Shown: in pieces, positions 4,024 through 48,239 of the stretch
How the letters are laid out: each line of letters opens with the position of its first letter
How positions within the stretch are numbered: position 1 is the stretch's first letter
The notes under the pieces: generated by a model
Told to the model about the DNA's origin: nothing
The model's database searches: none
The model's input: the letters and a program-made list of their open reading frames with translations, nothing else
Translations under genes and position numbers: made by a program
Source: Pararcticibacter amylolyticus
Lineage (GTDB): Bacteria; Bacteroidota; Bacteroidia; Sphingobacteriales; Sphingobacteriaceae
Reading direction: 5' to 3'
Assembly (NCBI RefSeq): GCF_003130405.1
Contig: NZ_QEAS01000018.1
Span: forward strand, 33,926 to 90,538
Length of the DNA: 56,613 nt

Positions 4024-5817
4024 TTACTCCCATTCAAAAGGGAGGAACCATTGGCTCATCGACGTCTTTTCAGTGAATCCCCCGGAACCGGAAGCATTAA
4101 ACTTCGCCTTGATCTTACCATTAAGAAAGCTTAACCCGGAACCGGCCATTTCCTTCTCCCTGCGGAAAGCAATCCTGAGGAGATCCTGCCACCGGTTGCC
4201 TTCATACGCCAGTTCCAAAGCCCCCTCGTCGATGATCTTGTTCTCCATAAAGAGGGTTAAACCAGCCCTGTCTTTAACTGTACGATTGGGGTAAAACTGC
4301 TCATATCCGGGAGCATCCCTCTCCACCCCGTTGAAATAAGCAACAGAGTCGGCATACGAAAGCCCGGAGACCTTTGCATTCATCCGCCCCCTGATCCCCA
4401 GGTTGCGGTGAAACTTTCCCCTGATCCTGGGCGCGTCGATCTTGCGGCCGTCGAGATTATACGGCTCGGGCAGGAATGTAGCCGACTTCTCAGTTTCAAC
4501 AGAAGTATTCGGATTAAAGGAATATGTAGTCCGGATCCCCTGGTTGATCAAAGCATACGCAATTTTATCATATCCCTCTCTATTGGCTGCTTCGGCATAA
4601 CGCAGATGAAGCAGGCTCGCACGGTAAAGGAACCATTTCCCATTCTTTTCAAGCGTGTTCGCCGGCACACCAGTAGTAGCATTCAGATAGTTATACAAAA
4701 ACTTCATAATTACGGGCTGACCGTTAATCATTTTATAACTATTGTTTTCACCTCTTAAGTCATAGGGTGTATTATCGGTCTGGTCCTGTGCCTTCCAGTT
4801 ACTAATAGCAACAGCAGAGGGTTTTACCAGGTATTTACCCCCGGCATTCGAAAACAAATCAATAAAAGGGTTTGCCGGCCGGAAATTCTTATCAAAAACC
4901 ATTGTCCAGATCCATTCCCACTGAAACTCCTTGTCCTGAAGTGACCTGGAAAAAAAACCCTGGTAAGCCGAAGTCTTAATCTCATCAACGCTTCCACTGC
5001 TGCCCACAAACTGATTATAGTAAATATCACCTGCAGCATCTCCCAGAGGAGTAGATGTTTCCAGTACTTGCTTATAGGCAATAGCAGCATTGTGATAATC
5101 GTTCTTCCACAGATACAGGTCGCCGAGGACACAATATTTATTCACAAAAAACAGTTTGCTCGGGTAACCGTCGATCTGAGTATTGAGGGAGCTCCCCGAC
5201 GCATAAGCATCCTTATATGGAAGCGATTCCATAAAGCTGATCAGCTCCGGAACAAGTTCATCCAGGTTCAGCCTGCGGAATTTTGCTGGGTCTTTCACAT
5301 CGTCTATATTTTCAATAGCTTCTGTAACATACGGAATCTGCCCGAAATGAATACCTAACTGAAAATACAACCAGCTCCTTAACGCCCCCATATCCGAGTA
5401 ACGCTGATCAAAATCGCTCTTCCCGATCTTACGGCTATCGTACATCAGCCGGAGGTTCTTCATTACGTCGTTACAATTCTGGATTACCGCATAGAAAGGC
5501 TTCGGATTTGCATAGGGATTATCACCTGTCACCGTATGGGTATTGATCTGCTTCAGATAACTATCCGAATTAACTGTTACATCCATCAGATCTCCCCTCA
5601 GTTCGTTCAGCACTTCATACTGCCCGGCAACCGACAACAGCTGACCATACACTCCGGTTACCCCGGCATCAGCGTCATAAATATTCTGCCATGCTTTACT
5701 CTCATCCACTGCATCCTCCGGCAGGACATCAAACATATTCCGGCAGGATGAAGCTGTTACAGTCACTAATACGAAAAAAGTTAGCCTGACTGACCATGTA
5801 AATATCTTACTTCTCAT
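4024..5817 (-). CDS. SusD/RagB-family lipoprotein (Module I, distal pair)
   Basis: Surface glycan-binding lid of a SusCD importer, 597 aa. The lipoprotein signal ends TASSC with Cys at about 25. It continues with the usual SusD start and tetratricopeptide-like helices, including NIYDADAGVTGVYGQL, LNELRGDLMDV and YSDMGALRSWLYFQLGI. The C-terminal part has LAYEGNRWQDLLRIAFRRE, the conserved SusD signature. It is paralogous along its length to the SusD at 32943-34700, with shared phrases such as LNELRGDL, NPYA and YVTE. It follows its SusC by 11 nt, the standard susC-susD arrangement, and precedes the pectate lyase by 43 nt. The ligand is unknown; pectic oligosaccharides are inferred from the downstream enzymes. 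Confidence 0.9.
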   Translation of the reverse strand: MRSKIFTWSVRLTFFVLVTVTASSCRNMFDVLPEDAVDESKAWQNIYDADAGVTGVYGQLLSVAGQYEVLNELRGDLMDVTVNSDSYLKQINTHTVTGDNPYANPKPFYAVIQNCNDVMKNLRLMYDSRKIGKSDFDQRYSDMGALRSWLYFQLGIHFGQIPYVTEAIENIDDVKDPAKFRRLNLDELVPELISFMESLPYKDAYASGSSLNTQIDGYPSKLFFVNKYCVLGDLYLWKNDYHNAAIAYKQVLETSTPLGDAAGDIYYNQFVGSSGSVDEIKTSAYQGFFSRSLQDKEFQWEWIWTMVFDKNFRPANPFIDLFSNAGGKYLVKPSAVAISNWKAQDQTDNTPYDLRGENNSYKMINGQPVIMKFLYNYLNATTGVPANTLEKNGKWFLYRASLLHLRYAEAANREGYDKIAYALINQGIRTTYSFNPNTSVETEKSATFLPEPYNLDGRKIDAPRIRGKFHRNLGIRGRMNAKVSGLSYADSVAYFNGVERDAPGYEQFYPNRTVKDRAGLTLFMENKIIDEGALELAYEGNRWQDLLRIAFRREKEMAGSGLSFLNGKIKAKFNASGSGGFTEKTSMSQWFLPFEWE

Positions 5818-5828
5818 ATTTCTTTCTT

Positions 5829-8800
5829 TTATAAACCAACCCGAACCCCCAGTTGTACAGATCTGAACTGCGGCTCCTGCGCAATGTCATATCCCATTGT
5901 CAAAGGACTGCCGCCTGAGCCCATCTCAGGATCATATCCCAAATATTTGGTTATTGTGAACAAATTATTCCCTGTTAAGTAAATACTCGCCGATTTCACA
6001 GTCCTGGTTTTCACAGGCAGCGAGTACGTAACGTTTAACGTCCGCAGTCTCAGGTAAGAGCCGTCTTCAATCCAGCGATCTGAAAACCGTGCGTTCCCCA
6101 TAGGATCCCCATAAGTAACCTTCGGGATATCAGTAGCCTGTCCGTCGTACTGCCAGCGGTTATTCATGGCGGCAGTTTGGTTTACCGGCATAGAACCAGA
6201 CTCAAGAATGGCTCTTGTACCATTGTATACATCATTTCCCTTACTGAAAGAAAATATAGTCTGCAAAGAAAACTTCTTCCAGGCAAGGGTTGTCTGAATG
6301 CCTCCGGTAAAGTCGGGGTTTGGGTTACCGATAACAGTTCTGTCCCGGTCGTCGATCACCCCGTCATTGTTAAGGTCCGCAAAATGGATGTCGCCCCCTC
6401 CGGGAACACGAAAACTTCCGTCTGCCATTTTTACCTGCTGACTGGCCGCCTTCGCTTCTGCATCTGAAGCAAACACACCCTGTGTGCGGAAACCATAAAA
6501 CTCATTCAGAGCGCCACCGGCGCGACTGATAACAGCGCCACCGGAATAAGTAGTTACAACAGGACTACCACCCGGCAGTGAAGTCACTTTATTCCTGTAG
6601 ACGGACACGATCGCCCCTACGTCCCATTTCAACGTACTGTTCAGCAGCCTGGCATTCACACTTGCCTCGATCCCCCGGTTCTTCATGCCCCCATTATTAG
6701 CAACCACAAAATCAAACCCTGCACCGGCAGGAACCTGGTTATATGTAACCAGATCCGTTATCCTGGTTTGAAATACGTCAACAGTAGCAGAAAGCCGTTC
6801 ATTAAAGAGGCTGATGTCCATCCCCGCATTCAGTTTCCTGCTCCTTTCCCAGGATAAATAAGGATTTCCGATATTCCCTCTGATCAATCCCTGGTTGCCC
6901 AGCAGGTTCTGCGACACGTAGTATCTCCTGGAAGTAAAATTCCCGATATCATCATTTCCGGATAAACCATAGCTAACCCTGAACTTAAGTAAATCCACCG
7001 GCCTGACATCTTTCATGAAGCTTTCTGATGACATGATCCAGGCGGCTCCGACTGAAGGAAGAAGCGCATAGGTATTTCCGTTAATCTTTAACGCTTTCCT
7101 TGCCTCTTTTCCAAACCTGGAAGAACCATCTGCCGAAGCATTAAAAGCCAGCAGGTATTTGCTCTTGTATGAATAGTTTATTCCCAGGTAGGCATTCAGC
7201 CAGCGCCATTTCCCCATGTCACCACCTATCTCTCTCAATGAATTGGAACTATACCCAATAGTGACAAAATCATCCGAAGGCGAATTATAGCCCGTTGCCC
7301 GGTCCTGTTCATTCTCCGAGCTCTGATACCTGAAACCAGCATTTGCCTCCAAGGTATGAGCAGAGGAGAAGCTCCGTTTATATGAATAATAAGTGTCATT
7401 ATAGATGGATGAGTAACGCTGTACACGGCTTGAAAGGGTGCTGTAAGCAACAGTATTGCTCAAGGTGTCGGGGGCTACACCAAGTCTCGGCACAAAATAA
7501 CTTTCCCTGACCTTGCTGTAAGCCAGCCCTACAAGAGATCCGATATTCCCGAACTTACCCGTTTTGTAATTAAACCTCACCGAACCAAAAAAGCGGGAAT
7601 GTTTGTTTACAGCATTCACATTCTCAAGTACGGCAACAGGGTTACTCATGTTAAACACATCCACACCCGCCAGGTTAGGCGACTCGGTACCGTCATCCGC
7701 AACCTGCATAACCGGCAGAAACGGCGATTTGGTAAGACCCAAAAGAAGCGGGTTCGTCCGGAGATTCAGCCCCTGGTCGGCTAATGACTGGTCTGCCGAA
7801 GTAAAGGCAATGTTGGTTTTCGCTGTCAGTTTTGTCGTAAGATTAAAATCAGCATTAAACCTTGCACTGTATCTCTTAAGATCCGTATTGTCTATAATCC
7901 CCTTGTTGCTGAGATAACCGACCGAAAGCGCGTATTTCGCAATATCATCACCTCCGGATACCTTCATATAGTAATTCTGATCATAACTTCCCGACAGGGT
8001 TTTGTCCTGCCAGTCCGTATTGTAATGATAGCGGTAGTAATCAGGAGAGGCTGTATTGTCATTCATATAAGGCAGCGCTTCAACCTGTGAAGCCGGAAGC
8101 CCTGAGCTCCGCAGCAGATCTGAAAGGTACAGGCGGTAATCGCCCACACCCATTACCGGCAGTTTTTCCGGCCGCATATTTACACCTCCGTAAACCGAGA
8201 AATCAATCTTCGTAGCCAGTTCTTTCGCATGCGCCGTTGAAATGATGATCACCCCGTTAGCCCCCCTTGTTCCGTAAAGGGAAGTTCCGTCTTTAATGAC
8301 AGTGAAGCTTTCAATGTCTTTAATATCAATAAGAGAAAGAGGGTTACTGATATGGGATCCGATCAGAGAGGTCCCGTAACTGTTTGCATCGTAAAGCATC
8401 CCATCCACGACGATGAGCGGCTGATTCGTTCCATACATGGAAGAAAAGCCGCGCATAACCAGGTTCGACCCAACTCCCGGGGTTCCCGATCTTCTGATCA
8501 CATTTAAACCGGGGACCTGTGCCTGCAGATAATTATCTGCATTTTCAAATGGCCTTGAATAGCTGTCTCTCACCACTACGTTCGACACTGCCGATACAGA
8601 GAACAGCCTGGAGGTCTTCCCGGAAGCGACAGATAAACTGATCTCATCAGAAAACGAACGGGCTGATTCATCATTCAGCAGAACACGCAGTACACTTTCG
8701 CCCCTTACAGGTAGTATTTTCGTGGTATATCCAGGTGCGGAAAACTTCAGAACTGCATCAGGAGAAGGAATCGCAATACGGAATTTTCCTTTCTCATCAG

Positions 8801-9029
8801 TAATTGCGGCGGAGTATCCTTCCACTGATATATTGACCCCTATTGCAGGTTGTTTGGTCGACGCATCCAGCACAGTCCCCGTTACATGTTCCTTAGGTGA
8901 TGATGAATGAGTAACAGAATCTATTTTTATTCCTTTTCCGGTTGTATTTACAGCAGCCTGCAACATGAGCGGCCCTGAAACAGCAAACATCAGGAGAAGG
9001 TGTTTTTTTATCTTATTTAATAACTTCAT
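5829..9029 (-). CDS. SusC-like TonB-dependent transporter (Module I, distal; degenerate TonB-box region)
   Basis: Outer-membrane 22-strand barrel transporter, 1066 aa. A signal peptide ends near 25 and a carboxypeptidase-regulatory-like domain follows (HVTGTVLDASTKQPAIGV onward, about 48-125). The plug has RRSGTPGVGSNLVMRGFSS and QPLIVVDGMLYD, then VIKDGTSLYGTRGANGVIII, and the rest is barrel. There is no STN domain. Where SusC proteins usually carry an EVVVxGYG-type TonB-box region, this one has DEISLSVASGKTS, a poor match. It ends in RVGL rather than a terminal aromatic residue. The same departures occur in its paralogue at 34707-37925, so they look like a subclass trait. It lies 21 nt after the small FAS1 gene and 11 nt before its SusD. 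Confidence 0.9.
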   Translation of the reverse strand: MKLLNKIKKHLLLMFAVSGPLMLQAAVNTTGKGIKIDSVTHSSSPKEHVTGTVLDASTKQPAIGVNISVEGYSAAITDEKGKFRIAIPSPDAVLKFSAPGYTTKILPVRGESVLRVLLNDESARSFSDEISLSVASGKTSRLFSVSAVSNVVVRDSYSRPFENADNYLQAQVPGLNVIRRSGTPGVGSNLVMRGFSSMYGTNQPLIVVDGMLYDANSYGTSLIGSHISNPLSLIDIKDIESFTVIKDGTSLYGTRGANGVIIISTAHAKELATKIDFSVYGGVNMRPEKLPVMGVGDYRLYLSDLLRSSGLPASQVEALPYMNDNTASPDYYRYHYNTDWQDKTLSGSYDQNYYMKVSGGDDIAKYALSVGYLSNKGIIDNTDLKRYSARFNADFNLTTKLTAKTNIAFTSADQSLADQGLNLRTNPLLLGLTKSPFLPVMQVADDGTESPNLAGVDVFNMSNPVAVLENVNAVNKHSRFFGSVRFNYKTGKFGNIGSLVGLAYSKVRESYFVPRLGVAPDTLSNTVAYSTLSSRVQRYSSIYNDTYYSYKRSFSSAHTLEANAGFRYQSSENEQDRATGYNSPSDDFVTIGYSSNSLREIGGDMGKWRWLNAYLGINYSYKSKYLLAFNASADGSSRFGKEARKALKINGNTYALLPSVGAAWIMSSESFMKDVRPVDLLKFRVSYGLSGNDDIGNFTSRRYYVSQNLLGNQGLIRGNIGNPYLSWERSRKLNAGMDISLFNERLSATVDVFQTRITDLVTYNQVPAGAGFDFVVANNGGMKNRGIEASVNARLLNSTLKWDVGAIVSVYRNKVTSLPGGSPVVTTYSGGAVISRAGGALNEFYGFRTQGVFASDAEAKAASQQVKMADGSFRVPGGGDIHFADLNNDGVIDDRDRTVIGNPNPDFTGGIQTTLAWKKFSLQTIFSFSKGNDVYNGTRAILESGSMPVNQTAAMNNRWQYDGQATDIPKVTYGDPMGNARFSDRWIEDGSYLRLRTLNVTYSLPVKTRTVKSASIYLTGNNLFTITKYLGYDPEMGSGGSPLTMGYDIAQEPQFRSVQLGVRVGL

Positions 9030-9050
9030 ATCCTATGTATTAATATCAGG

Positions 9051-10484
9051 TCAGGGGAGTACGGGAACCAGTTTAAAATAATCCAGATTAATGGAGTTGA
9101 TTCCATCTGTCCCGTTGTTGTCGGCGATAATGTAGACGGTAAGGTCTCCGTATTTATCTACAGTATATTCGCCCACTTCCACCTCGGAATAATCCTTCAG
9201 CGGAACAGTTTTTTCAAGGTAATCACCATCAAAATTGTTAAAGGCAATCCTTTGCTTGAACGTTTTGTCCTGTGAATCATTAGGAGCCACCCAGTAGATC
9301 TTATATTTCCCTTTATAAACCTTGTGAAAATTATACTTCACGTGGAACAGGGGAACTTTGTGATTGAAAACATAGATATCATTATACAGGTAGGCGCCTT
9401 CCGACAATGGCGCCCTGCGCAGACGGAGAGCAATATTCCCCGCTTTGTCTGTTCTGCTGAATCCGTCCGGTGTCTCACCTTCTCTCCGGACCGGCATGAT
9501 CTTATCAGCTAAAGCCACGGAGGCAGAACTCATCCGGTAAATAAACCCGTTGCTCGTTTTGATCTTTTCCAGGACAGCGTCTTTCCTGAACGGCACTCTT
9601 ACTCCGTCATCCGATATCAGTTCAGCTGATTTAAGCGTATCAATATCGATTGCTTTCCTGAAAACCAGGTCCTTCAGAACGGTATACGCATTATCAACCA
9701 GGGGATGATCGCCTCCGGTATAAGGCTGGAACTTTGCAAGCTCGGCATCTATCGCGTCGTCCTGCAACAGGATAACAGTATATTCCTGTCCCTCATCTGC
9801 CAGTCCGCCGGTCTTATCAAAAAGATAATTCTTTTTAATAATACCAGTCCCCGGCTTATAAATTGGCTTGCTTGTCACCGGATCCACCCCTATCTGCTCT
9901 GCCCTGGCAGAATCAATCGCATCATATTCCAGGCTTTTAATATAATCCTTCTGCTTAAAGGATGTATTATTCATATACTCGAGGATATTCTGCTTAGGAT
10001 AAACAATCCCGTTCAAAACATGCAATACTCCGTTCCCGGCAAAAAGATCCTGCTGAACAAGGGTTATACCTTCCAGTTTTTTAGCACCAAACCTCACATA
10101 TTTTCCGTTCAGCGTTTTAAGCCGCAAAGTAACAGTGTCGGAGATCTTTGTTGAATACGGCTGGCTGACAATATAATTCCCCACAAACTGTTTCAGCCTG
10201 GCCGTATCATTCAATACCGATTCGTCCAGTTGTTCAAGAGCGCTGTTTTGAGGGGCCCATACAGTGAATTTATAGGAAGACGCCAGCGTTTTATCATATC
10301 CGGTCCTGACGAGCAGATCTTTGAACCTGCTCAGATCCGGGTTCGTTTCGATAACCTCCAGCAAATTCTTTCCTAACAAAGGCTCATTAAGTTCAGAATG
10401 ATCGTTCCACGGATCCTTACATCCCGCCATAATACATTGCAGGGATACCAGGAGCACGAATATTTTAGTGAGTTTAATCATCAT
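9051..10484 (-). CDS. Small FAS1-domain lipoprotein (Module I)
   Basis: 477-aa lipoprotein with lipobox CIMAGC (Cys about 22) followed by charged KDPW. FAS1 domain 1 is about 47-165, with FTVWAPQNSALEQL and the closing NGVLHVLNGIVYP. A weaker second FAS1-like region is about 168-328, with YTVILLQDDAID and TSNGFIYRMSS. The C-terminal part (about 340-475) reads as a beta-sandwich: YKGKYKIYWVAPN, VEVGEYTVDKYGDLTVYII and NSINLDYFKLVPV. This pattern resembles CBM6/CBM35/malectin-type carbohydrate-binding domains. FAS1 domains are adhesion modules in other proteins. A role as a surface glycan-binding partner of SusCD is inference. Paralogue: 37959-39473. Confidence 0.85.
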   Translation of the reverse strand: MMIKLTKIFVLLVSLQCIMAGCKDPWNDHSELNEPLLGKNLLEVIETNPDLSRFKDLLVRTGYDKTLASSYKFTVWAPQNSALEQLDESVLNDTARLKQFVGNYIVSQPYSTKISDTVTLRLKTLNGKYVRFGAKKLEGITLVQQDLFAGNGVLHVLNGIVYPKQNILEYMNNTSFKQKDYIKSLEYDAIDSARAEQIGVDPVTSKPIYKPGTGIIKKNYLFDKTGGLADEGQEYTVILLQDDAIDAELAKFQPYTGGDHPLVDNAYTVLKDLVFRKAIDIDTLKSAELISDDGVRVPFRKDAVLEKIKTSNGFIYRMSSASVALADKIMPVRREGETPDGFSRTDKAGNIALRLRRAPLSEGAYLYNDIYVFNHKVPLFHVKYNFHKVYKGKYKIYWVAPNDSQDKTFKQRIAFNNFDGDYLEKTVPLKDYSEVEVGEYTVDKYGDLTVYIIADNNGTDGINSINLDYFKLVPVLP

Positions 10485-10500
10485 GTTATTTTTTGTTAAT

Positions 10501-10523
10501 TACTGCCGGAGACTCCGGCAGTA
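10501..10523. other. Inter-gene hairpin between two FAS1 genes
   Basis: Perfect inverted repeat in the 50-nt gap after the medium FAS1 stop: TACTGCCGGA and its complement TCCGGCAGTA around a 3-nt loop. There is no strong U-run on the minus strand, so it is more likely an mRNA processing or stability element than a terminator. The corresponding 22-nt gap in Module II has no such hairpin. Confidence 0.6.
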
Positions 10524-10534
10524 TGTTTAAATTT

Positions 10535-12295: not shown

Positions 12296-12328
12296 GACAA
12301 TGATTTTCCTTTCTTTGATTACCGTTAA

Positions 12329-13807: not shown

Positions 13808-13817
13808 AATATGTCAT

Positions 13818-19929: not shown

Positions 19930-22832
<2,903 letters not shown>

Positions 22833-22836
<4 letters not shown>

Positions 22837-32806: not shown

Positions 32807-32825
32807 CCCTGTGAAGACAAAGGCA

Positions 32826-32859
32826 CCTGGCAACAGGGATTTCGCCCCCTGTTGCCAGG
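32826..32859. other. Strong hairpin between Module II SusD and the CE12 gene
   Basis: Thirteen-base perfect inverted repeat (CCTGGCAACAGGG and its complement) with an 8-nt loop. It is only weakly followed by T residues on the minus strand, so it may be a leaky terminator or an RNA-stabilising end for the SusCD message. It marks the boundary between importer genes and enzyme genes. Confidence 0.75.
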
Positions 32860-39473: not shown

Positions 39474-39495
39474 CTTTCTATTATTAAGATTACTA

Positions 39496-41175
39496 TCAGG
39501 GTTTGTTAATGATCGTTCCGTTTGTGTGGAAACGCGGCCAGATCTGATCCTGGTCCACGGGGATAAAATGGATCATATCCCACCAGGTTCCATTGGCATC
39601 ACCACCGGCGGTACCTACGCCCTCAAAACGAAGCAGGTGCTTATCGGTAGTTTTTACGTCAACGGTACCGAGGTAGCGGCTGACTATCGCATTGTTGCTG
39701 GTAACATCAGTATGCCACTTGAAGCCGGCCCCCTCCATCTCCGCATCGGAAACGTTCTTAAGATTATATTCAGCCATGTTGAGGATGCGCGACAGAGGAG
39801 CTCCGTCAAAATAGCCCTGCAGTAATGGTGCCCTGCTGTTAGCTCGGTAGCACACCCAGATCTTGTACTTACCTCTCACGAGCATAGGCGTTACGAACTC
39901 AATCCAATGTGCCCTTTTTGTAGAAGCTGCTGCAGCCATTGGCAACTGCAAACGATTTCCCTTAAAGTGCCCTGCACCGGCATTTCCCTGGTAATTGATT
40001 GTATAACCGCTTTCCCATCGTATTGCATCGAGCTTCGTAATGCCATTGATGACGCCGCCGTTGAATGCCGGCTGCGATTTCAGTTCAGGCTGCTCTGCAA
40101 CGTCATAATAAACAGCAACAGGATTTCTTACCTTGATAGTGAAGTGTCCGGCTGCCAGATGCAGAACGCCATTAGCAGCAGAATTGTCGCTTTGGTTCCT
40201 GACAATCTCCACCCCTGGCTCGTATACCCCGTTAAACTCGTCGTCATTAACCAGTACTTTTTGATTTTTTTCCTTCGTTGTGATCACCTCAAACGGAGCG
40301 TATGTCCGATGGGATGTAGAAGAAACAATATCAGCCAGGTATTTGGCATCGGGAAGAATATGATAAAGGGCAAAAAGATAAAGACTGTCGTGAGGATTCT
40401 GAGGATTTCCTGTTTTGCAATACCTGTCTTTAAGGGCCTGGTAGCTTGGAAAACCAGCCGCAGCGAGGGCTTCATCGGGCTCAGCGATGAGCGTCTTCCA
40501 CCGGCCCGTACTATCGGGATCAGTATTATCGGCGGGCAGCACATTAAGGGAATCGTAAAGATGGGTTTCTCTTAACAGTTGTTTAAAGATAGAGAGACGT
40601 TCGTCTGCGTCTACCATTTGGGCAACCGTAAACTTTGCAGGCTTCAGTACCTGATCAATTGAATGGATAATGCCGTTCCCGGTCAGAATATTTGCTTTCA
40701 CAATATTGGCTTGCCGGTTTACTGTTATTTTAGTTACACCGCCGGCATTTGCTGTTCCGGTTATGAGAAACTGACCATACATGGTGAGTCTCGGCAGCTT
40801 TCCATCAGTAAACGCTGTTGTTCCGATAGTATCCTGGAGTATATGATAACGCACCAGATCTAAAAGATCCTTCGCGGGGATCTGGTCTGCAGAGGATACT
40901 CCTTTTTCTTTCAGATAGGCATCAACGGCACTGTTTGTCGGGGCAAAAAGAGTATATTCGCCGTATGCACCAAGAAATGCAGCGGTCTTGGTTAAGTCAA
41001 GAATTTTCCGGAACTCAGAAAATTCGTCAGGATGATTATCCAGATACCCCGTAATATTCACATCAGAAGTGGTCTCGTAAACTATATTGTCTTTTTTGCA
41101 GGCACTCAGATATACGAGAATAACACAAGACATTCCCAGAATCATTGCAAATGCGTTCTTCTTAAGCTCTTTCAT
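39496..41175 (-). CDS. Medium FAS1-domain lipoprotein with CBM-like C-terminus (Module II)
   Basis: 559-aa lipoprotein from the ATG at 41175 (MKELKKNAF; lipobox YLSAC); a TTG at 41181 is the only earlier start. Two FAS1 domains: about 45-175 (GAYGEYTLFAPTNSAVDAYL, closing NGIIHSIDQVLKP) and about 180-340 (LSIFKQLLRETHLYDSL, closing NGVLHLAAGHFTIK). The C-terminal beta-sandwich has VRGKYKIWVCYRANSR, LQGYFDGAPLSRIL, TVDVKTTDKHLLRFEGVG and WDMIHFIPVDQDQIWPRF. This order resembles CBM6/malectin folds, where the pGkYkv strand and a final D-I-F strand are hallmarks. It lies 16 nt after SusD. Paralogue: 10535-12295. Confidence 0.85.
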   Translation of the reverse strand: MKELKKNAFAMILGMSCVILVYLSACKKDNIVYETTSDVNITGYLDNHPDEFSEFRKILDLTKTAAFLGAYGEYTLFAPTNSAVDAYLKEKGVSSADQIPAKDLLDLVRYHILQDTIGTTAFTDGKLPRLTMYGQFLITGTANAGGVTKITVNRQANIVKANILTGNGIIHSIDQVLKPAKFTVAQMVDADERLSIFKQLLRETHLYDSLNVLPADNTDPDSTGRWKTLIAEPDEALAAAGFPSYQALKDRYCKTGNPQNPHDSLYLFALYHILPDAKYLADIVSSTSHRTYAPFEVITTKEKNQKVLVNDDEFNGVYEPGVEIVRNQSDNSAANGVLHLAAGHFTIKVRNPVAVYYDVAEQPELKSQPAFNGGVINGITKLDAIRWESGYTINYQGNAGAGHFKGNRLQLPMAAAASTKRAHWIEFVTPMLVRGKYKIWVCYRANSRAPLLQGYFDGAPLSRILNMAEYNLKNVSDAEMEGAGFKWHTDVTSNNAIVSRYLGTVDVKTTDKHLLRFEGVGTAGGDANGTWWDMIHFIPVDQDQIWPRFHTNGTIINKP

Positions 41176-41191
41176 CTCCAATACAGGTTAA

Positions 41192-42694
41192 TTATTTATA
41201 AAATGGGTTTTGTTCGAGCAAGCCGCCTCCGCGGGTCAGTTCATCAGCATTGACAGGCAGGTAGTGACTGTTAAAATCCCGGTACTTATTACGAACAGCC
41301 TGCTGGCTGTTTCCGGGTGCATTCACCACCACGATATCGAGCATCCTGTTGAATGCGGATGTAGAGTAATTATTCCTTTTAGCGTGGCGCAACACATCAA
41401 ACCACCTTTTTCCTTCAAATGCAAATTCACGTGCGCGTTCAGAGAGTATATAGTCGGAGATTCCTTCCTGATCTTCGGGATCAGGGTTTTGCTCGGTTGC
41501 GGCCAGAGCGTGCGCTCTGGCCCGGATTGTTTTGACGAGGCTTAATGCCTCTGCACCTTTTCCAAGCCATGTTAAGGCCTCTGCCTTCATCAGCAGGATA
41601 TCGGCGTAACGGTAAACAATCCAGTGTGAAGTGTAATCGTCGATGCTGCGGCCTTCAAGATCACCCTGACCTCCGTTTGCCCCCGCATATTTCCAGACGA
41701 CGTTTATGGATGAATTTACGGAAGCGCCGTTCCCCCGGAAGTCGTACAATGAGGGATTTTCTATATTAACGGTGTAAATCTCATCCATCACGACGGGATT
41801 TACCTCAAACCGGCGGGTGGAAGCCCCAAACATGTTATAGAAGGGATTGAGCCGTTGCTTATCAAACTGAATTTCAAAGATGCTCTCATTGGAATTTTGT
41901 AAATAATACAAGATGCTGAACCAGCGGGACTGTGAGGATTCTGTAATGAGGCCGAACTTGCCGGAGTTCACCAGCTTGTCGCAAGCGTCAAGCGCCTTCT
42001 GATAATCTTCCATCCACAGATACACATCCGCCTGCATCGCATTCACCGTGTACTTTGTAATCCGGCCCTTGTCCTTTGCTGTTGAGCCATAGGTTATAAA
42101 GGCATGTTTGTCGGCAAAGTCAAGATCGCTTATAATCTGCCGGGAAACTTCGTCTTTACTGCTTTTGGCGATACGTTCAATATCCTTATCAGAGGAGGAA
42201 GGATCCAGCTTAAGAGGGACCTCTCCAAATACCCGTAAGAGATAGAAATACATCAGGCCCCGGATGCCGTAGGCTTCCGCCATATATGCGTCGAGTTCAT
42301 CCTGAGACAGGGTCGGATCACTTTTCAGTACCTGGGGGGCAAATTTTATAACTGTATTACAATAATTGATCGTACTATATACGATCCCCCAGTTTGTATA
42401 TCCGTTTGACGAAAGGATATTTGTCGTCATCAGGTTTTGCTCGTCGATCGTGGTACGGGTAGTCGCGGCGATCATATCGGCCCTTAACTCGCCCCAGACA
42501 AAAAGATTGTTTACCAGAGGATCCTTAAGAAGAGAGGCGTAAATCCCTGTCACGGCAGCCTGCACCTGCTCCTTTGTCTTCCAGAAATCACCTCCCGTTA
42601 TTCCATCCTGAGGTTTCAGTTCAAGCCATTTATTACAGGATGATGTGCAGAGAACAAGAGTCAGTACAATTGAACACACCAATATCTTTTTCAT
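41192..42694 (-). CDS. SusD/RagB-family lipoprotein (Module II, proximal pair)
   Basis: 500-aa SusD homologue. I start at the ATG at 42694 (MKKILVCSIVLTLVL, lipobox CTSSC, Cys about 20) rather than the TTG three codons earlier. N-terminal KWLELKPQDGITGGDFWKTK, then LFVWGELRADMIAA, AYGIRGLMYFYLLRVFGEVP and the C-terminal signature ERAREFAFEGKRWFDVLR followed by HAKRNNYS. It pairs with the SusC 18 nt upstream. Paralogue: 12329-13807. A 22-bp perfect palindrome sits inside the gene at 41501-41522, in the stretch encoding RARAHALAA; the paralogue has different residues there, so it is not required by the fold. Confidence 0.92.
   Translation of the reverse strand: MKKILVCSIVLTLVLCTSSCNKWLELKPQDGITGGDFWKTKEQVQAAVTGIYASLLKDPLVNNLFVWGELRADMIAATTRTTIDEQNLMTTNILSSNGYTNWGIVYSTINYCNTVIKFAPQVLKSDPTLSQDELDAYMAEAYGIRGLMYFYLLRVFGEVPLKLDPSSSDKDIERIAKSSKDEVSRQIISDLDFADKHAFITYGSTAKDKGRITKYTVNAMQADVYLWMEDYQKALDACDKLVNSGKFGLITESSQSRWFSILYYLQNSNESIFEIQFDKQRLNPFYNMFGASTRRFEVNPVVMDEIYTVNIENPSLYDFRGNGASVNSSINVVWKYAGANGGQGDLEGRSIDDYTSHWIVYRYADILLMKAEALTWLGKGAEALSLVKTIRARAHALAATEQNPDPEDQEGISDYILSERAREFAFEGKRWFDVLRHAKRNNYSTSAFNRMLDIVVVNAPGNSQQAVRNKYRDFNSHYLPVNADELTRGGGLLEQNPFYK
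41501..41522. repeat. Perfect inverted repeat inside a susD gene
   Basis: GGCCAGAGCG and its exact complement CGCTCTGGCC are separated by two bases within the coding region. It could form a GC-rich hairpin in the mRNA. The site has no obvious function and may be chance from Ala/Arg-rich codons. Confidence 0.6.
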
Positions 42695-42712
42695 TATCTT
42701 CAATTTAAACGA

Positions 42713-45700
42713 TTAAAAACCAAGGGTTAAGCCCAGCACAAAATTCTTTGTCGGAGGAGTCAGGCTATCGTCCTGCGCATACTTGAAAGGATCGGTATTT
42801 CCTTTTACCGACACATCGGGATCCTGCCCTGTATAATTCGTCCACGTATAAAGATTCTCGGCAGTCAGGTAGATGGTACCCGTTTTAATTCCTAAGCGGC
42901 GGAGGAGATCTTTATCCATGGTATACCTCAATGTGACTTGCCGGAGCCGGACGAAAGATGCATCTTCCACATACCGGTCTGAGCCAAGCCAATTGTATCC
43001 CTTCCGGTAGAGAGCCCTTGGGATATCGGTTTCGTCTCCCGGATTCCGCCATCTTCTCAACACCGCAGTGCTTTGATTATTGAAGCTGAACATATTGGTC
43101 GTATTCATCTTTCCCCCGTTAATCATGTCATAATCCATACGGTAGTTAAAAAAGGTTTGAAGAAACCAGGTCTTCTTATAATTCACATTGAAGCCAAATC
43201 CTCCCGTCACCTTCGGAATACTGTTCCCTAAATACACCATGTCTTTATAATCGATATTACCATCATGATTTATATCCTCATACCTGGCATCTCCTGCCTG
43301 GAAAACATAATCCGTGAGCGGGTAGTTAAAACGCATTCTGACGTTCTGCCCTGTAGGACCTGTTATGATTTCTCCGTTCGCATCGCGGGCCAGGGTAGCA
43401 TCGTCATCTTTGTAAACTCCCTTATACCGGAAGCCGTAGAAGGATCCAAAGGGATTACCAATTTGCAGATAGGTCTTGTACTTACCATTTTCTCCCACCC
43501 TTACTGTATTTTCACGGGGGTAGTATTCAGAAACCGATTTAACAACATTCAGATTCTGTGCAATATTGAAATCTACACCGATTGTCCAGTTCTTCGTTTT
43601 TAGGGGGATAGTGTTGATAAGGAGCTCCCAGCCCTTATTATCCATCGTACCAACATTAAACATGAGCTGGCTATACCCGCTGTAATATGGCAGCTGCAAT
43701 TTGTCAAACAGGAGGTCACGGGTGCGGTTCCTGTAAATTTCGGCATCAAGCCTGATCCTGTAATTAAAAAGACCGAGATTGAATCCCAGGTTCTCACCGA
43801 CCAGGGTTTCCCATTTCAGGTTATCTAATTGAATCGAGGCCGGGTAAACTCCCGACTCTCCTAAATAGGTCCAGTTCCAGGTGTTATAATTATTATAGAA
43901 AAGATAATTTCTTGAAGGTGCTTTCCCGGCATGCCCATAACTTGCACGGAAACTAAGATCATCTATAAATTTAAACTTCTGCATAAATGGCTCGCCCTGC
44001 TCTCCTGCAAAGTGCCATCGCAGGGATACTGCCGGGAAATAGCCGTACCTGTTCTGAGATCCGAAGCGTGAATTGCCATCCATGCGGATACTTCCGTTTA
44101 TCATGTAGCGGTTTTTGTACCCGTACTGCCCGTTAAGCAGAACCCCGATGGTCCGGTATTGCTCAAGCCCTGAAGTGAGATCGCCTGTGATCGTCCTGGA
44201 TGGTATGGATGGGTCTCCAAGCAATGAAGATGCAGTATTGGACGTCAGGCTGTATTGAGTCTGATTCCTTTCATCGGTGGTCTGTATTGAGAGCAGAGAT
44301 GTGAAACTATGGTTCTCAGGCAGCTGCGGATTAAAGAAAAACTTAAGGTTCGACTGTATTCCAAAACCATCCCAGTCTGAATCTGTCGCCCTGTTTACAA
44401 ATGTCTCTGTGAAATAGCGGCCTGTAGCAATCTGGGGAAGGAATGTATTGGTCTTGGAGCTATTAATATCAAACTGGAGGTCGAAAGTTGTCAGAAGCCA
44501 CTTTGGAATCAGATCGTACCTTATATTAAATTTAGGCACTACCCTTTGAACGGTGGTATTCATGAAACCTTCATTAGCCATTGCAAGAGGATTAAAAGTA
44601 CCGGTCACTCTTAGTTTATCGTCAAAGCCGAACTGTCCCTGGATGTTTGAAGCAGGCGAGAGATAGACCGGGGTCATATTACCATACTCGTCAAACTCAT
44701 AAGGCGACATGTTGGGCATTTTCTGATAAGCCACATCCCTGATCCTATCGGTAAAATTAGCCGGGTTGTTTGAATACGTATAGGCAATATCGGTCCTGAA
44801 CCGGATCCTGTTGGACACGTTGTAATCGAGATTTATCTTCGAGGTGATCCTTTCCAGGGCTGTGCCTTTGGTTGTTCCTTTCGAATTGAGATATCCGACG
44901 GAAGCGTAGTACTTCGCTTTCTGCCCGCCGCCGGTCATCGATATGTTATGATCGTGCTGAATACCTGTGCGGGTTATCTCATCGATCCAGTTGGTATTGT
45001 TGCTGTAATTATAATAGTAATAGGGATCATTAGGGTCGTAGGAGAACTCCTTGTTATTATTCCTGTTCAGGGGCAGTCCACCCGCATTGGAAACCATCTC
45101 GGGAACAAGCATTGAGAACTGGTCGCCTGACAGCAGCGGAATGGGTTCCGGCTGCTTGTTTACCGTAGCACGCAAATTATATGTCACCACCGGCTTTCCT
45201 ATTGCTCCGCGTTTGGTGCGGACAATAAGCACTCCGTTAGCCGCCCTGGCACCCCAAACAGCCGTTGATGCAGCATCCTTAAGCACCGTAATCTCCTCAA
45301 TATCAGAGGGGGCAATATTCAGCAGCTGAGCGTAGCCCTGTGCGTCGGCTGTACCAAAATCAAAGCTTTCGGGAACAGAAGTTTCATAGGGCATATCGTC
45401 GACGACAATGAGCGGATTTGAATTGCCACTTAATGATGCCGTTCCCCTGATCCTGATGGACATACCGGCTCCGGGGTCGCCGGAAGTACTGCCAAAATCG
45501 ACACCGGGCATGCGCCCCTGCAAGGCCTGGTCTATAGATGCTGCAGAGAGCTCTTTGAGGTCGTCTGCCTTAACGCGGGTGATAGCTCCTGTTATATTCT
45601 TCTCGTCGATCAGAAGGCCTCCGCCGGTTGATACCTGCTTTTTCGCAGTAATCACCACATCCTGCAGTTCTTTTGATGATCCGTCGAGCTGGACATTCAG

Positions 45701-45991
45701 TACTGTCCGCCCGTTGATGCTGATAACCGAAGTTCTATATCCTATGTACGATACGGAGATCCTGTTCTGAAGACTGGAAACCCTCAGCACGTAGTTCCCT
45801 TCTATATCGGTAGAGATGCCGGTGATGGTTCTGCCGTCCTTGTCCAGTTCGACAACAGACGCACCAATAATTGCCTGCTTGTCCTGTTTGTCTGTCACCT
45901 TTCCCCGCAGGATCGCTTTCTGGCCTGCTGTCTGTGCTGCCAGCTCTGCCAGTGTGAATATAAATACAAGGACAAGACTTATCTTTTTCAT
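42713..45991 (-). CDS. SusC-like TonB-dependent transporter (Module II, proximal)
   Basis: 1092-aa transporter from the ATG at 45991, which begins a clean signal peptide (MKKISLVLVFIFTLAELAAQ). Earlier in-frame ATGs at 46033 and 46015 would overlap the upstream gene and add a polar stretch. Carboxypeptidase-regulatory domain (GKVTDKQDKQAIIGASVVEL), TonB-box-like LQDVVITAKKQ, plug with SIDQALQGRMPGVDFGS, IRIRGTASLSGNSNPLIVVD and VLKDAASTAVWGARAANGV; the barrel ends LTLGF with the expected aromatic residue. It has no STN domain. It is paralogous to 13818-17087 over its whole length. It lies 25 nt after the large FAS1 gene and 18 nt before its SusD. The substrate is unknown. Confidence 0.92.
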   Translation of the reverse strand: MKKISLVLVFIFTLAELAAQTAGQKAILRGKVTDKQDKQAIIGASVVELDKDGRTITGISTDIEGNYVLRVSSLQNRISVSYIGYRTSVISINGRTVLNVQLDGSSKELQDVVITAKKQVSTGGGLLIDEKNITGAITRVKADDLKELSAASIDQALQGRMPGVDFGSTSGDPGAGMSIRIRGTASLSGNSNPLIVVDDMPYETSVPESFDFGTADAQGYAQLLNIAPSDIEEITVLKDAASTAVWGARAANGVLIVRTKRGAIGKPVVTYNLRATVNKQPEPIPLLSGDQFSMLVPEMVSNAGGLPLNRNNNKEFSYDPNDPYYYYNYSNNTNWIDEITRTGIQHDHNISMTGGGQKAKYYASVGYLNSKGTTKGTALERITSKINLDYNVSNRIRFRTDIAYTYSNNPANFTDRIRDVAYQKMPNMSPYEFDEYGNMTPVYLSPASNIQGQFGFDDKLRVTGTFNPLAMANEGFMNTTVQRVVPKFNIRYDLIPKWLLTTFDLQFDINSSKTNTFLPQIATGRYFTETFVNRATDSDWDGFGIQSNLKFFFNPQLPENHSFTSLLSIQTTDERNQTQYSLTSNTASSLLGDPSIPSRTITGDLTSGLEQYRTIGVLLNGQYGYKNRYMINGSIRMDGNSRFGSQNRYGYFPAVSLRWHFAGEQGEPFMQKFKFIDDLSFRASYGHAGKAPSRNYLFYNNYNTWNWTYLGESGVYPASIQLDNLKWETLVGENLGFNLGLFNYRIRLDAEIYRNRTRDLLFDKLQLPYYSGYSQLMFNVGTMDNKGWELLINTIPLKTKNWTIGVDFNIAQNLNVVKSVSEYYPRENTVRVGENGKYKTYLQIGNPFGSFYGFRYKGVYKDDDATLARDANGEIITGPTGQNVRMRFNYPLTDYVFQAGDARYEDINHDGNIDYKDMVYLGNSIPKVTGGFGFNVNYKKTWFLQTFFNYRMDYDMINGGKMNTTNMFSFNNQSTAVLRRWRNPGDETDIPRALYRKGYNWLGSDRYVEDASFVRLRQVTLRYTMDKDLLRRLGIKTGTIYLTAENLYTWTNYTGQDPDVSVKGNTDPFKYAQDDSLTPPTKNFVLGLTLGF

Positions 45992-46016
45992 GATGTATCT
46001 TACTCTTATGCCCATT

Positions 46017-48239
46017 TTATTCCAGATCTCCATATTTAAGGACTTTATTGATTGAGTGAATAAGAGTCCGGTTGGACAGATTATTACTATAAGAAAGATT
46101 TGTGGTAGTGGTATTTCCTTTCGAATCCCGGAGAAGAAGTCCGGAGGCCTGCCTGGTCACTGAGATATACTCCTTTCCTCCTTCAAGATTGGTCAGCAGA
46201 GTTTCTACAGAAAGGGCATCATCAGTCTTTCCATCTGCGGCAATTGTCTTTTTATTGAGGAGATGGTATTTGATAAACTTCGATACCTTTTCCGCATCGC
46301 CTTGTGCCGGATTAAAATTCGGAACACCGGTAGCTGCATTGCCAGGAAGGATTTCATCCCGGACAGCCTGCTCTATAGCGGCATTGGTGGGTACAAACAG
46401 GGTGTAAAAGCTCCCGGCTGCCGTTCCGGAGATCACTTGTGACGCCTGGGTATAAACGAGGGAGTTTAACAAATAATTATAAAAATGGCTAAACTGTGCA
46501 GGCATTGATGCAGCGAGCTTCTGCAGATGGAAACCAATTTCCTTTTCAGTGAATTTCAGTATCCCGTGGGTGTAGTAAACAGGTCCGTTAATGGTATTTT
46601 CCACCTTGTCTATCGTGACCGCGTCTCCGGCGTCTTCATTTCCGGCTGCATATACCTTCCCATTTTTATACTTGATATATTCTTCGTTAAAAGTCTGTAA
46701 GATGCCTTCCCCCGACAGGTCGGGAACTTTTTCGGGAACTACCGAGTTTTGTACAATCCGGTATACCCTGTTCCTGGAAATCTCCGCGTTCTGCTCAACT
46801 CCGTTGAGCGTATAAGCCCATCGCAGGAATTGTGTGTTATAACTATAGCCCTCATTCGCAAACTGACCATTGGAAATAAGGAAAAGGGTATAACCGATAG
46901 AAGGGTTGATCAAAGAGTATTTGAGGCTCGTTTCATCCAGCGCTTTAGTCATCAAAGAATATTGAGGATCCAGGTATGGCTTAGAATAAACCGTTCTAAA
47001 CACATTGGCCTTCTGAACTTCATTCGTGGCATAAAACATCCCGTTACTCATCAGCTTTTTCTCCATGATATTAGCGGCTGAGAAAGTTGCGGTTTCATTC
47101 TGGCTGTTCTTTAAACTGCCAAGTTTCCCGGGCCAGAGGGTTGCGGTCCACATATGGCTATTGATAAAATCAGTAAGCAGGGATTTGGGAGCGTCTTTGA
47201 AAGATCCGTATTTATCTTTCAAGATTCCGCCTTCTTTATATAAAAAGGTCTCAAGAGCATCGTTGGTGGGTACAACAAGAGTGAATCCGTCAGTCTGGGG
47301 ATCTGTTGTATTGTTGGTATAGTTTTCGCTGTTCGGCGCAAAAGAGAGCAAGCTGCTATACAACTTCGCATACACTTTTTCTGACGACCCGGTCAGTACG
47401 TTGTATCTATGCGTAAGGTCGGGAATCTCAGTATAGGTGACCAGATAGTCATCCAGTAATTTCTTAAATTCTGAGTAATCAGCATTCGATGCAAGTTGTT
47501 CGTCGATAGTTCTCAAAGGAGTAATCACCTTATCTATTTCATGAATGACTCCGTTTTCAGCCAGGATATCCGCGTTGACAACTTTAGCTCCGGCAACATT
47601 AAATCCCGAAGGTACTGACCCAGGGAAAAGGGTAGTATAGTCGTCGTCGGTCACTCCCTTATTATCCATAAAACCCTTTATGAAGTAGGGGACATGTTTA
47701 TTGTTATTATCATTAAGGATATAGACTCCTGAATTAACCCCGTCGGGAGCAATGGAATTCCCATCCACAATTTTATCTATGCCATCCTTCTTTGGACCTT
47801 CTTTTACAAAATCATAATAAGCGGTACGCCGTTTATAGGCAGAATTGGGCACTGGTCCGCTTGCCGCCTGATAATTTGTAAGCTGATCCTTCCGGAATGC
47901 ATCTATTACAAGTGAATATTTCACAATTGCCCGGGCCTGCTCTTCGCTGATACCGGCAACTGTGGTAAGCTTATTCTCCGAAAGAAATGCCTGGAATGCG
48001 TCGTCGTTAGGGGCAAATACAGTCCACCATCCCTGGGAGCTCAGGATATTCTTGTACCCTGCTTTATCTACGACCGACAGAAACGAGGTAAAATTCTTCC
48101 TTGCCTGCAACTGCTGGTAAATCGGGTCGCCCAACCATTCCGGCCGGTCGTAATAATCGTTCCACTCCTTTTTACTACACCCGGATGCAAGGATGAGCAG
48201 GAGAATGCAGATTAAGAATTTTGGTACTAATCTATTCAT
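46017..48239 (-). CDS. Large four-FAS1 lipoprotein, first gene of Module II
   Basis: 740-aa lipoprotein (lipobox LASGC, Cys about 21, then SKKEW). It has four FAS1 domains in the same order as its paralogue at 17111: the first opens with ARKNFTSFLSVVDKAGYKNI and WTVFAPNDDAFQAFL; the second with FTLVVPTNDALETFL; the third with DPQYSLMTKALDETSLKYSL; the fourth with YTLFVPTNAAIEQAV and closes LIHSINKVLKYG. The phrase YYDRPEWLGDPIYQQLQ after the signal is almost the same as in Module I, which supports block duplication. It leads the operon behind a leader of about 270 nt. No enzymatic motif is visible; surface binding or adhesion is the likely role. Confidence 0.87.
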   Translation of the reverse strand: MNRLVPKFLICILLLILASGCSKKEWNDYYDRPEWLGDPIYQQLQARKNFTSFLSVVDKAGYKNILSSQGWWTVFAPNDDAFQAFLSENKLTTVAGISEEQARAIVKYSLVIDAFRKDQLTNYQAASGPVPNSAYKRRTAYYDFVKEGPKKDGIDKIVDGNSIAPDGVNSGVYILNDNNNKHVPYFIKGFMDNKGVTDDDYTTLFPGSVPSGFNVAGAKVVNADILAENGVIHEIDKVITPLRTIDEQLASNADYSEFKKLLDDYLVTYTEIPDLTHRYNVLTGSSEKVYAKLYSSLLSFAPNSENYTNNTTDPQTDGFTLVVPTNDALETFLYKEGGILKDKYGSFKDAPKSLLTDFINSHMWTATLWPGKLGSLKNSQNETATFSAANIMEKKLMSNGMFYATNEVQKANVFRTVYSKPYLDPQYSLMTKALDETSLKYSLINPSIGYTLFLISNGQFANEGYSYNTQFLRWAYTLNGVEQNAEISRNRVYRIVQNSVVPEKVPDLSGEGILQTFNEEYIKYKNGKVYAAGNEDAGDAVTIDKVENTINGPVYYTHGILKFTEKEIGFHLQKLAASMPAQFSHFYNYLLNSLVYTQASQVISGTAAGSFYTLFVPTNAAIEQAVRDEILPGNAATGVPNFNPAQGDAEKVSKFIKYHLLNKKTIAADGKTDDALSVETLLTNLEGGKEYISVTRQASGLLLRDSKGNTTTTNLSYSNNLSNRTLIHSINKVLKYGDLE

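What the first reader, a model, noticed from the sequence alone, without database searches (positions are those of the whole stretch)
4024..48239. A seven-gene FAS1/SusCD module present twice in tandem
The order large FAS1, SusC, SusD, medium FAS1, small FAS1, SusC, SusD occurs at 19294-4024 and again at 48239-32943. Every position pairs with a recognisable paralogue. Two dissimilar SusCD pairs and three FAS1 lipoproteins of three fixed sizes are kept together in both copies, while the downstream enzymes differ (PL1/propeller/GH28 versus CE12/sulfatase/GH43-like/GH2x3). A conserved unit with exchangeable enzymes suggests one multi-protein surface machine. FAS1 genes do occur near SusCD in annotated Bacteroidota, but I know of no assigned role in glycan uptake.
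Basis: partly seen in the sequence, partly recalled or inferred. Interest (0 to 1): 0.78.

Follow-up and report, generated by a model that had tools for sequence, protein, structure and literature searches.

The report
Paired pectin-uptake module with FAS1 lipoproteins
The window holds two distantly related copies of a conserved seven-gene outer-membrane unit that most likely captures and imports pectin (rhamnogalacturonan I) fragments; it looks like a relative of a known gut-Bacteroides pectin system, and what is new is its fixed paired-transporter architecture built around FAS1 proteins.

Summary
FAS1(F1)-SusC1-SusD1-FAS1(F2)-FAS1(F3)-SusC2-SusD2 occurs twice, each gene the reciprocal best match of its counterpart (32-57% identity). 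In 251 genomes, 92 of 93 F1 places and 93 of 93 F3 places lie near an F2.

The copies are not tandem duplicates: sisterhood is rejected for all seven genes. SusC1 and SusC2 are sister clades, so the unit probably arose by an older doubling of a FAS1-SusC-SusD cassette; six-gene forms without F3 exist.

Likely substrate: rhamnogalacturonan I. One GH2 passes the curated cut-off for B. thetaiotaomicron BT4151, a rhamnose operon adjoins, and the published BT4164-BT4169 locus has the matching layout. F2 is modelled as two FAS1 domains plus a sandwich resembling glycan-binding modules.

Best reading: a pectin-capturing, two-transporter surface machine with FAS1 lipoproteins as glycan-binding and scaffold parts. 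Binding and physical assembly are untested; homology to the BT proteins was not tested by sequence.

The parts
17111..19294 (-). F1a: large FAS1 lipoprotein, copy a (four FAS1 domains, inferred from the fold match)
   Evidence: Pfam Fasciclin; AlphaFold mean pLDDT 92.4; Foldseek alignment of 723 columns to four-FAS1 TGFBIp 7asg
13818..17087 (-). C1a: SusC-type TonB-dependent transporter 1, copy a
   Evidence: TIGR04056 740 bits
12329..13807 (-). D1a: SusD-type lipoprotein 1, copy a
   Evidence: PF07980, PF14322
10535..12295 (-). F2a: FAS1 lipoprotein, two FAS1 domains plus C-terminal beta-sandwich, copy a
   Evidence: Pfam; AlphaFold mean pLDDT 91.6; Foldseek
9051..10484 (-). F3a: small FAS1 lipoprotein, paralogue of F2, copy a
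   Evidence: Pfam; hhalign F2 with F3 probability 99.8 over 440 columns; not modelled
5829..9029 (-). C2a: SusC-type transporter 2, copy a
   Evidence: TIGR04056 706 bits
4024..5817 (-). D2a: SusD-type lipoprotein 2, copy a
   Evidence: PF07980
2730..3980 (-). secreted beta-helix enzyme, pectate-lyase-like
   Evidence: NCBIfam PelZ 90 bits, below its cut-off of 840
1446..2519 (-). GH43-like enzyme
   Evidence: PF04616 40.8 bits, cut-off 32.2
5..1456 (-). GH28, nearest curated model alpha-D-galacturonidase BT4155
   Evidence: PF00295; NF049892 355 bits, below its cut-off of 800
46017..48239 (-). F1b: large FAS1 lipoprotein, copy b
   Evidence: Pfam
42713..46033 (-). C1b: SusC 1, copy b
   Evidence: Pfam
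41192..42703 (-). D1b: SusD 1, copy b
   Evidence: Pfam
39496..41181 (-). F2b: medium FAS1 lipoprotein, copy b
   Evidence: Pfam
37959..39473 (-). F3b: small FAS1 lipoprotein, copy b
   Evidence: Pfam
34707..37925 (-). C2b: SusC 2, copy b
   Evidence: Pfam
32943..34700 (-). D2b: SusD 2, copy b
   Evidence: Pfam
31478..32833 (-).
   Evidence: PF13472, PF21254
29762..31384 (-). sulfatase
   Evidence: PF00884
28715..29755 (-). GH43-like enzyme
   Evidence: PF04616
25821..28691 (-). GH2, nearest curated model exo-beta-1,4-galactosidase BT4156
   Evidence: NF049891 870 bits, below its cut-off of 1700
22833..25799 (-). GH2, beta-galactosidase-like
   Evidence: NF041462 268 bits, below its cut-off of 900
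19930..22836 (-). GH2, exo-beta-1,4-galactosidase of the BT4151 type
   Evidence: NF049890 1620 bits, above its cut-off of 1500
48820..55756 (-). third SusCD pair (SusD 48820-50340, SusC 50360-53914 with a weak STN match), FecR anti-sigma 54055-55059 and ECF sigma 55172-55756; probably regulates the cluster (inferred)
   Evidence: Pfam

Best explanation
Each seven-gene copy is the outer-membrane part of a polysaccharide utilisation locus for pectin, most likely the rhamnogalacturonan I (RG-I) region. Proposed working: F2 and F3, lipoproteins on the cell surface, catch acidic pectin chains with a C-terminal sandwich that resembles CBM35 and xanthan-binding modules; their FAS1 domains, and the four-FAS1 protein F1, act as spacers or docking parts on the transporters. 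Surface enzymes cut the bound chain and two related SusCD pairs import the fragments; the downstream enzymes trim them and the adjacent rhamnose operon uses the rhamnose. The two SusCD pairs arose from one doubled FAS1-SusC-SusD cassette and have been kept as a pair. Shown here: gene order, co-occurrence, the sister relationship of SusC1 and SusC2, the modelled folds of F1 and F2, the enzyme families. Inferred: substrate, binding, surface position, the role of FAS1, physical assembly.
For: Order: 98 of 101 loci and 7 of 7 named. Gaps between genes have medians of 9-33 bases over 97 modules. 92 of 93 F1 places and 93 of 93 F3 places lie within 9.5 kb of an F2. SusC1 and SusC2 are sister clades (98*) apart from 31 other SusCs of the same genome. 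F2 and F1 models have mean pLDDT 91.6 and 92.4. The F2 search returns 7ehg, named MiXBM (target TM 0.66-0.74), xanthan lyase 6f2p and GH26-CBM35 3zm8. F2 matches DUF5108 in 23 of 57 members, and a DUF5108 protein lies within BT4164-69, the SusCD part of the RG-I locus. Enzymes: BT4151 model above cut-off, BT4156 and BT4155 models nearest for two others but below cut-off. Downstream of other modules: rhamnogalacturonan lyase family 11, GH28, GH88, GH106, GH115, GDSL, GH43, GH2. RhaT and a rhamnulose-1-phosphate aldolase fusion, both above cut-off, lie on the same strand just outside the window.
Against: No sequence of BT4164-BT4169 could be compared. No Pfam carbohydrate-binding family matches the sandwich; the Foldseek list also holds unrelated beta-sandwich proteins such as insecticidal Cry toxins, so the fold match is not specific. 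None of 45 F3 proteins matches DUF5108. F1 matches TGFBIp with a low TM score (0.37 of the query), so the domains agree but not their arrangement. Copy b carries a sulfatase, not an expected RG-I enzyme (own knowledge). Four of 20 extended modules have no same-strand gene directly downstream, the downstream list also holds unrelated genes such as PorP/SprF, UvrB and MFS proteins, and no comparison was made with the neighbours of other SusCD pairs. SusD2 follows the other genes least well (Spearman 0.49 with SusC2 in the main clade). FAS1 proteins are better known in adhesion.
Confidence: 0.67

Rival explanations
1. Two independent SusCD transporters, each with its own FAS1 glycan-binding protein, take up two different products of the same pectin. 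They are kept together by co-regulation and joint transfer, not by physical assembly.
For: Within the main clade F1 correlates best with C1 and D1 (0.89, 0.88) and F2 and F3 best with C2 (0.85, 0.84). Two SusCD pairs for one pectic glycan are described for the arabinan, homogalacturonan and RG-I loci of B. thetaiotaomicron.
Against: SusC1-SusC2 correlation (0.83) is no lower than SusC1-SusD1 (0.81). Neither FAS1-bearing half was seen alone: F1 was not found without F2 apart from one contig fragment. I did not search for the SusCD genes of one half without FAS1.
Confidence: 0.4
2. The FAS1 lipoproteins are mainly adhesins that hold the cell to plant or algal surfaces, co-transcribed with an uptake system.
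For: F1 aligns over its length to TGFBIp and periostin. FAS1 proteins are reviewed as mediators between cell surface and exterior (PMC6032426, passages). An abundant FAS1 transcript in a SusCD-bearing symbiont, and fasciclin proteins of marine flavobacteria, were read as adhesion (PMC10199937; PMC2668756).
Against: The FAS1 genes sit inside the transporter operon, two of them between SusD1 and SusC2, and F1 and F3 were not found away from F2. The sandwich of F2 resembles glycan-binding modules.
Confidence: 0.15
3. The two copies are a local tandem duplication, and the shared order merely reflects that.
For: Same order, same strand, neighbouring positions.
Against: Sisterhood of the copies is rejected for all seven genes, p-AU from 2e-72 (F2) to 7.3e-5 (D2). 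In every gene tree at least 10 of 103 other modules are closer to copy a than copy b is, and at least 27 are closer to copy b than copy a is. In two smaller trees that leave out the nearest relatives, SusC2 and SusD2 of the two copies do fall together (98*, 99*); with the relatives included they do not.
Confidence: 0.01

Closest known systems
RG-I polysaccharide utilisation locus of Bacteroides thetaiotaomicron (BT4145-BT4183), outer-membrane part BT4164-BT4169
   Same: SusC-SusD, two genes, SusC-SusD in the published numbering (BT4164/65, 4166, surface RG-I-binding BT4167, BT4168/69); a DUF5108 protein within it; enzymes of families found here, with a BT4151-type GH2 in the window
   Different: Sequence homology of the SusCD and FAS1 genes to the BT genes not tested. 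Control there is linked to an HTCS regulator, BT4178, here probably to ECF/FecR (inferred). No data on whether BT4163 corresponds to F1.
Utilisomes (levan and dextran systems of B. thetaiotaomicron; PMC7618045, abstract and discussion seen)
   Same: SusCD plus surface lipoproteins of one locus acting on one glycan; best solved match of C1a is the SusC homologue 8aa4
   Different: Those have one SusCD type and four components; here two SusCD types and three FAS1 lipoproteins. A complex is not shown here.
Gramella locus with a FAS1 gene and SusD (PMC4891872, figure legends seen)
   Same: A FAS1 domain protein is drawn in a polysaccharide utilisation locus
   Different: Its gene order and sequences were not compared; neighbours in the legend (AraC, mannose-6-phosphate isomerase, epimerase) point to another substrate
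TGFBIp / periostin (human four-FAS1 proteins)
   Same: F1 aligns over its length to them
   Different: About 16% identity and low whole-chain TM score; bacterial lipoprotein, different setting
CBM35 and xanthan-binding modules (3zm8, 7ehg)
   Same: Beta-sandwich fold of F2 by Foldseek
   Different: 10-13% identity; no Pfam CBM match; ligand unknown

Membership tests
RG-I PUL outer-membrane apparatus (BT4164-69 type) | two SusCD pairs separated by two surface-protein genes | tested here: met
   C1 D1 F2 F3 C2 D2 in both copies against the published gene roles; the role of BT4166 is not given in the text seen
RG-I PUL outer-membrane apparatus (BT4164-69 type) | DUF5108 protein within the set | tested here: inconclusive
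   23 of 57 F2 proteins match DUF5108 at E <= 0.01; in the window F2a does not and F2b only at E 0.12. The BT annotation is from a table that does not say which gene it is
RG-I PUL outer-membrane apparatus (BT4164-69 type) | RG-I enzymes linked to it | tested here: met
   BT4151 model 1620 bits over its cut-off of 1500; BT4156 and BT4155 models nearest but below cut-off; families at other modules
RG-I PUL outer-membrane apparatus (BT4164-69 type) | sequence homology of the SusCD and surface proteins to BT4164-BT4169 | not tested
RG-I PUL outer-membrane apparatus (BT4164-69 type) | binds and imports RG-I | not testable with these tools
   needs an experiment
Utilisome | stable complex of SusCD with surface lipoproteins | not testable with these tools
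   needs purification
Surface glycan-binding protein | lipoprotein with an exported N-terminus | tested here: met
   The N-terminal cysteine is invariant in F2 (57 rows) and F3 (45 rows) and at least 90% conserved in F1 (50 rows); surface position inferred
Surface glycan-binding protein | binds the glycan | not testable with these tools
   needs an experiment
CBM35 | matches the family by sequence | tested here: not met
   no CBM family at E <= 5 for the C-terminal stretches of F2a, F2b, F3a and F3b
CBM35 | beta-sandwich fold | tested here: met
   Foldseek hits 3zm8 and 7ehg; that they align to the C-terminal domain is inferred, ranges are not given; that 4qaw and 7bys also bear CBM35 is recalled

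The most novel reading that the evidence does not exclude
The two SusCD pairs form one obligate heteromeric double transporter (SusC1D1 beside SusC2D2, in place of the usual like-with-like pair), held together and fed by FAS1 lipoproteins. It arose when a FAS1-SusC-SusD cassette doubled, and neither half works alone.
Probability: 0.3. Interest if true: 0.82.

Novelty: new variant of a known kind. Interest (0 to 1): 0.58.

Why it matters
Whether complex loci with several SusCD pairs assemble mixed machines is named as unknown in the discussion of the utilisome paper (PMC7618045). This module is a natural test case: it is compact, fixed in order, spread over several families, and its two transporters are sisters that have stayed together. 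It would also give FAS1 proteins a likely role in bacterial glycan uptake, and F2 offers a sequence handle for finding such pectin loci in genomes.

Tried and rejected
Local tandem duplication of the two copies: rejected for all seven genes. Plasmid carriage: F2a matches 4 of 72,556 plasmid records, none over 80% of the query; the best (Runella) is a FAS1 gene with no SusCD among the 16 features in the 17 kb seen. Solved structures by sequence: F1, F2 and F3 profiles match only FAS1 proteins. A search with the deeper F2 profile lists 144 of 395 genomes at E 1e-12; among the rows shown (the list is cut), eight genomes have matches of 660 bits or more and the next best is 145 bits, so the rest look like ordinary FAS1 proteins. 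DUF5108 as a marker: 3 of 296 genomes. SusD tree: all module SusDs fall together (100*) apart from 34 others, but one six-gene SusD2 falls with SusD1 (88). Seventeen divergent module SusDs entered ungrouped because of my score filter, and the same filter left out the nearest lone SusD, at L220; the test of D1+D2 as one clade (p-AU 0.162) is therefore not clean. F3 is the gene that often disagrees in the copy-against-copy comparisons with the window, though its own tree gives the same relatives.

Literature: searches. No text that I saw gives FAS1 proteins a role with SusCD, but I opened only part of the listings, and the library lacks most subscription journals. A FAS1 gene in a locus with SusD is in print (PMC4891872, figure legends). 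Papers: PMC10199937, PMC10434189, PMC3243724, PMC5061871, PMC13088901, PMC10405439, PMC6032426, PMC4891872 and PMC2668756 seen as passages; PMC8002723 passages and one section; PMC7618045 abstract and discussion; PMC3668549 not held. The other titles in the listings were not opened.


Full report
Observation. The window carries two sets of seven genes on the minus strand in the order F1 C1 D1 F2 F3 C2 D2, at 19294-4024 and 48239-32943. Pfam confirms FAS1 in all six F genes and SusC/SusD domains in the others. All seven pairs are reciprocal best matches among the window's 28 proteins, with identities 43, 57, 44, 41, 32, 50 and 46% in module order; SusC1 and SusC2 share 27-30%. In the whole genome a FAS1 profile search gives 13 matches: 12 lie in these genes and one elsewhere.

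Conservation. An F2 profile found seven named loci: Rufibacter, Pontibacter, two Niastella, two Pedobacter and Pelobium; all seven have the full order. In a draw of 395 genomes from the phylum, 8 including the window's own have an F2 match at E 1e-40; in a draw of 251 from the window's family, 64 including its own do. I fetched 101 of these places, leaving out the window's own two and two contig-end fragments in G003, and taking two genes reported in two pieces once each. The full order is present in 98 of 101; in one of the 98 SusC2 is split in two frames. The three exceptions are two extra F2 genes placed after SusD2 of complete modules (G583, G524) and one reduced unit (G016 contig 3). Gaps between genes have medians of 9-33 bases over the 97 unsplit modules. 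The named locus L020 (Pelobium) and L073 are the same sequence, so the two sets share one duplicate; this also places the window's genome in the family of Pelobium, Sphingobacteriaceae.

Converse. In the same 251 genomes F1 gives 93 places and F3 93, one F3 gene being listed in two pieces. All F3 places, and all F1 places but one on a contig fragment of G003, have an F2 within 9.5 kb on the contig. The search scores only the best few candidates per genome, so a weak stray copy could be missed. I did not search for SusC1-SusD1 or SusC2-SusD2 without FAS1.

Ancestry. Patristic distances of the seven genes over 106 modules (one a duplicate) correlate at 0.81-0.95, and at 0.49-0.89 within the main clade, lowest for SusC2 with SusD2. 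Relatedness of genomes contributes to this. For pairs of genomes with two or more copies, all seven genes agree on the pairing of copies in 348 of 658 comparisons and at least six in 430 of 658; these are not independent. The window's copy a groups with Rufibacter, Pontibacter, G631, G628, G549, G016 and G595, copy b with G455. Sisterhood of the two copies is rejected on 31 modules for every gene: p-AU F1 4.8e-5, C1 1.2e-42, D1 2.4e-8, F2 2e-72, F3 8.1e-9, C2 1.7e-5, D2 7.3e-5 (quick trees, LG+G4). In two smaller trees without the nearest relatives, SusC2 and SusD2 of the two copies do join; this goes away when the relatives are included. So the two copies are old separate lineages of the module that now sit side by side. 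That copy a's nearest kin lie partly in Hymenobacteraceae suggests transfer between families (inferred).

Origin of the two transporters. SusC1 and SusC2 from ten modules each, including two six-gene forms, are sister clades with support 98*, apart from 31 other SusCs of the window's genome. Those 31 are the 30 best TIGR04056 matches of at least 57 plus the third SusC of the window, not a sample of the phylum. The six-gene forms (L197 of G012; L165 of G016) run FAS1, SusC, SusD, FAS1, SusC, SusD. F2 and F3 are paralogues over most of their length. Simplest account (inferred): one FAS1-SusC-SusD cassette doubled, then the second FAS1 gene doubled again. For SusD all module members form one clade (100*) but the split of D1 and D2 is not clean.

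Structure. F2a is modelled with mean pLDDT 91.6: two FAS1 domains and a C-terminal sandwich. Foldseek returns FAS1 proteins and, for the sandwich (inferred, since ranges are not given), 7ehg (MiXBM; that this is a xanthan-binding module is recalled), xanthan lyase 6f2p and GH26-CBM35 3zm8, together with other sandwich proteins, Cry toxins among them. By sequence the sandwich matches no Pfam CBM family, but 23 of 57 F2 proteins match DUF5108; none of 45 F3 proteins does. F1a is modelled with mean pLDDT 92.4 and aligns over 723 columns to four-FAS1 TGFBIp, with a whole-chain TM score of only 0.37. F3 was not modelled. The N-terminal cysteine is invariant in F2 (57 rows) and F3 (45 rows) and at least 90% conserved in F1 (50 rows).

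Substrate. The GH2 at 19930-22836 passes the curated cut-off for exo-beta-1,4-galactosidase BT4151; the GH2 at 25821-28691 is nearest to BT4156 and the GH28 to BT4155, both below cut-off. All three BT genes belong to the published RG-I locus. Of 20 modules with extended downstream sequence, 16 have same-strand genes directly downstream and four have none. Among 65 such proteins (at most five per module) the families shown include rhamnogalacturonan lyase family 11, GH28, GH88, GH106, GH115, GDSL, GH43 and GH2, and also unrelated ones such as PorP/SprF, UvrB and MFS (the first 25 families of 73 and of 54 are shown). There was no control set of other SusCD neighbourhoods. Just right of the window on the same strand are LutB- and LutA-like proteins, an FGGY kinase and a rhamnose-isomerase-like protein (below their cut-offs), and a rhamnulose-1-phosphate aldolase fusion and RhaT (above cut-off). 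Rhamnose is a backbone sugar of RG-I.

Comparison with the known. The review PMC8002723 gives BT4164/65 and BT4168/69 as the two SusCD pairs and BT4167 as the surface RG-I-binding protein, and a table in PMC10434189 lists a DUF5108 protein within BT4164-69. This is the C1 D1 F2 F3 C2 D2 layout. A FAS1 gene in a Gramella locus with SusD is also in print.

Mechanism. F2 and F3 catch pectin, enzymes cut it, and two sister transporters import the pieces, with FAS1 domains as spacer or docking parts. Gene order, co-occurrence and the modelled folds are shown; capture, docking and assembly are inferred. Rivals are two independent transporters under one control, and FAS1 proteins as adhesins.

Verdict.

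Noticed in passing
window 48820-55756: A third SusCD pair with FecR anti-sigma and ECF sigma genes lies directly upstream of copy b; its SusC has a weak STN match (E 0.019), so it may be the signalling receptor that controls the cluster.
   Followed up: partly
L175:141-8465 (just right of the window, G000:C62): Same-strand L-rhamnose set with RhaT, aldolase fusion, isomerase-like, kinase-like and Lut-like proteins; the window's last gene (56021-56611) is a LUD-domain protein, perhaps of the same set.
   Followed up: yes
L174:11083-19649 (left of the window): Another SusCD pair and a 1218-aa DUF4450 protein lie left of the window; DUF4450 proteins also occur downstream of other modules.
   Followed up: partly
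L135/L138 (G524) and L136/L137 (G583): An additional F2 gene stands after SusD2 of a complete module, an eight-gene form.
   Followed up: no
L148-L164: Divergent modules with the same seven-gene order, in some followed by a further SusC or SusC-SusD.
   Followed up: partly
main-clade gene trees: SusD2 correlates poorly with its neighbour SusC2 (0.49) but better with F1, C1 and D1 (0.71-0.76); exchange at the 3' end is one possible reason.
   Followed up: no
L085 (G621): SusC2 is split into two reading frames; described only.
   Followed up: no
window's genome G000: 121 SusD matches and 57 SusC matches scored in one 6.3 Mb genome, a very large glycan-uptake repertoire.
   Followed up: no
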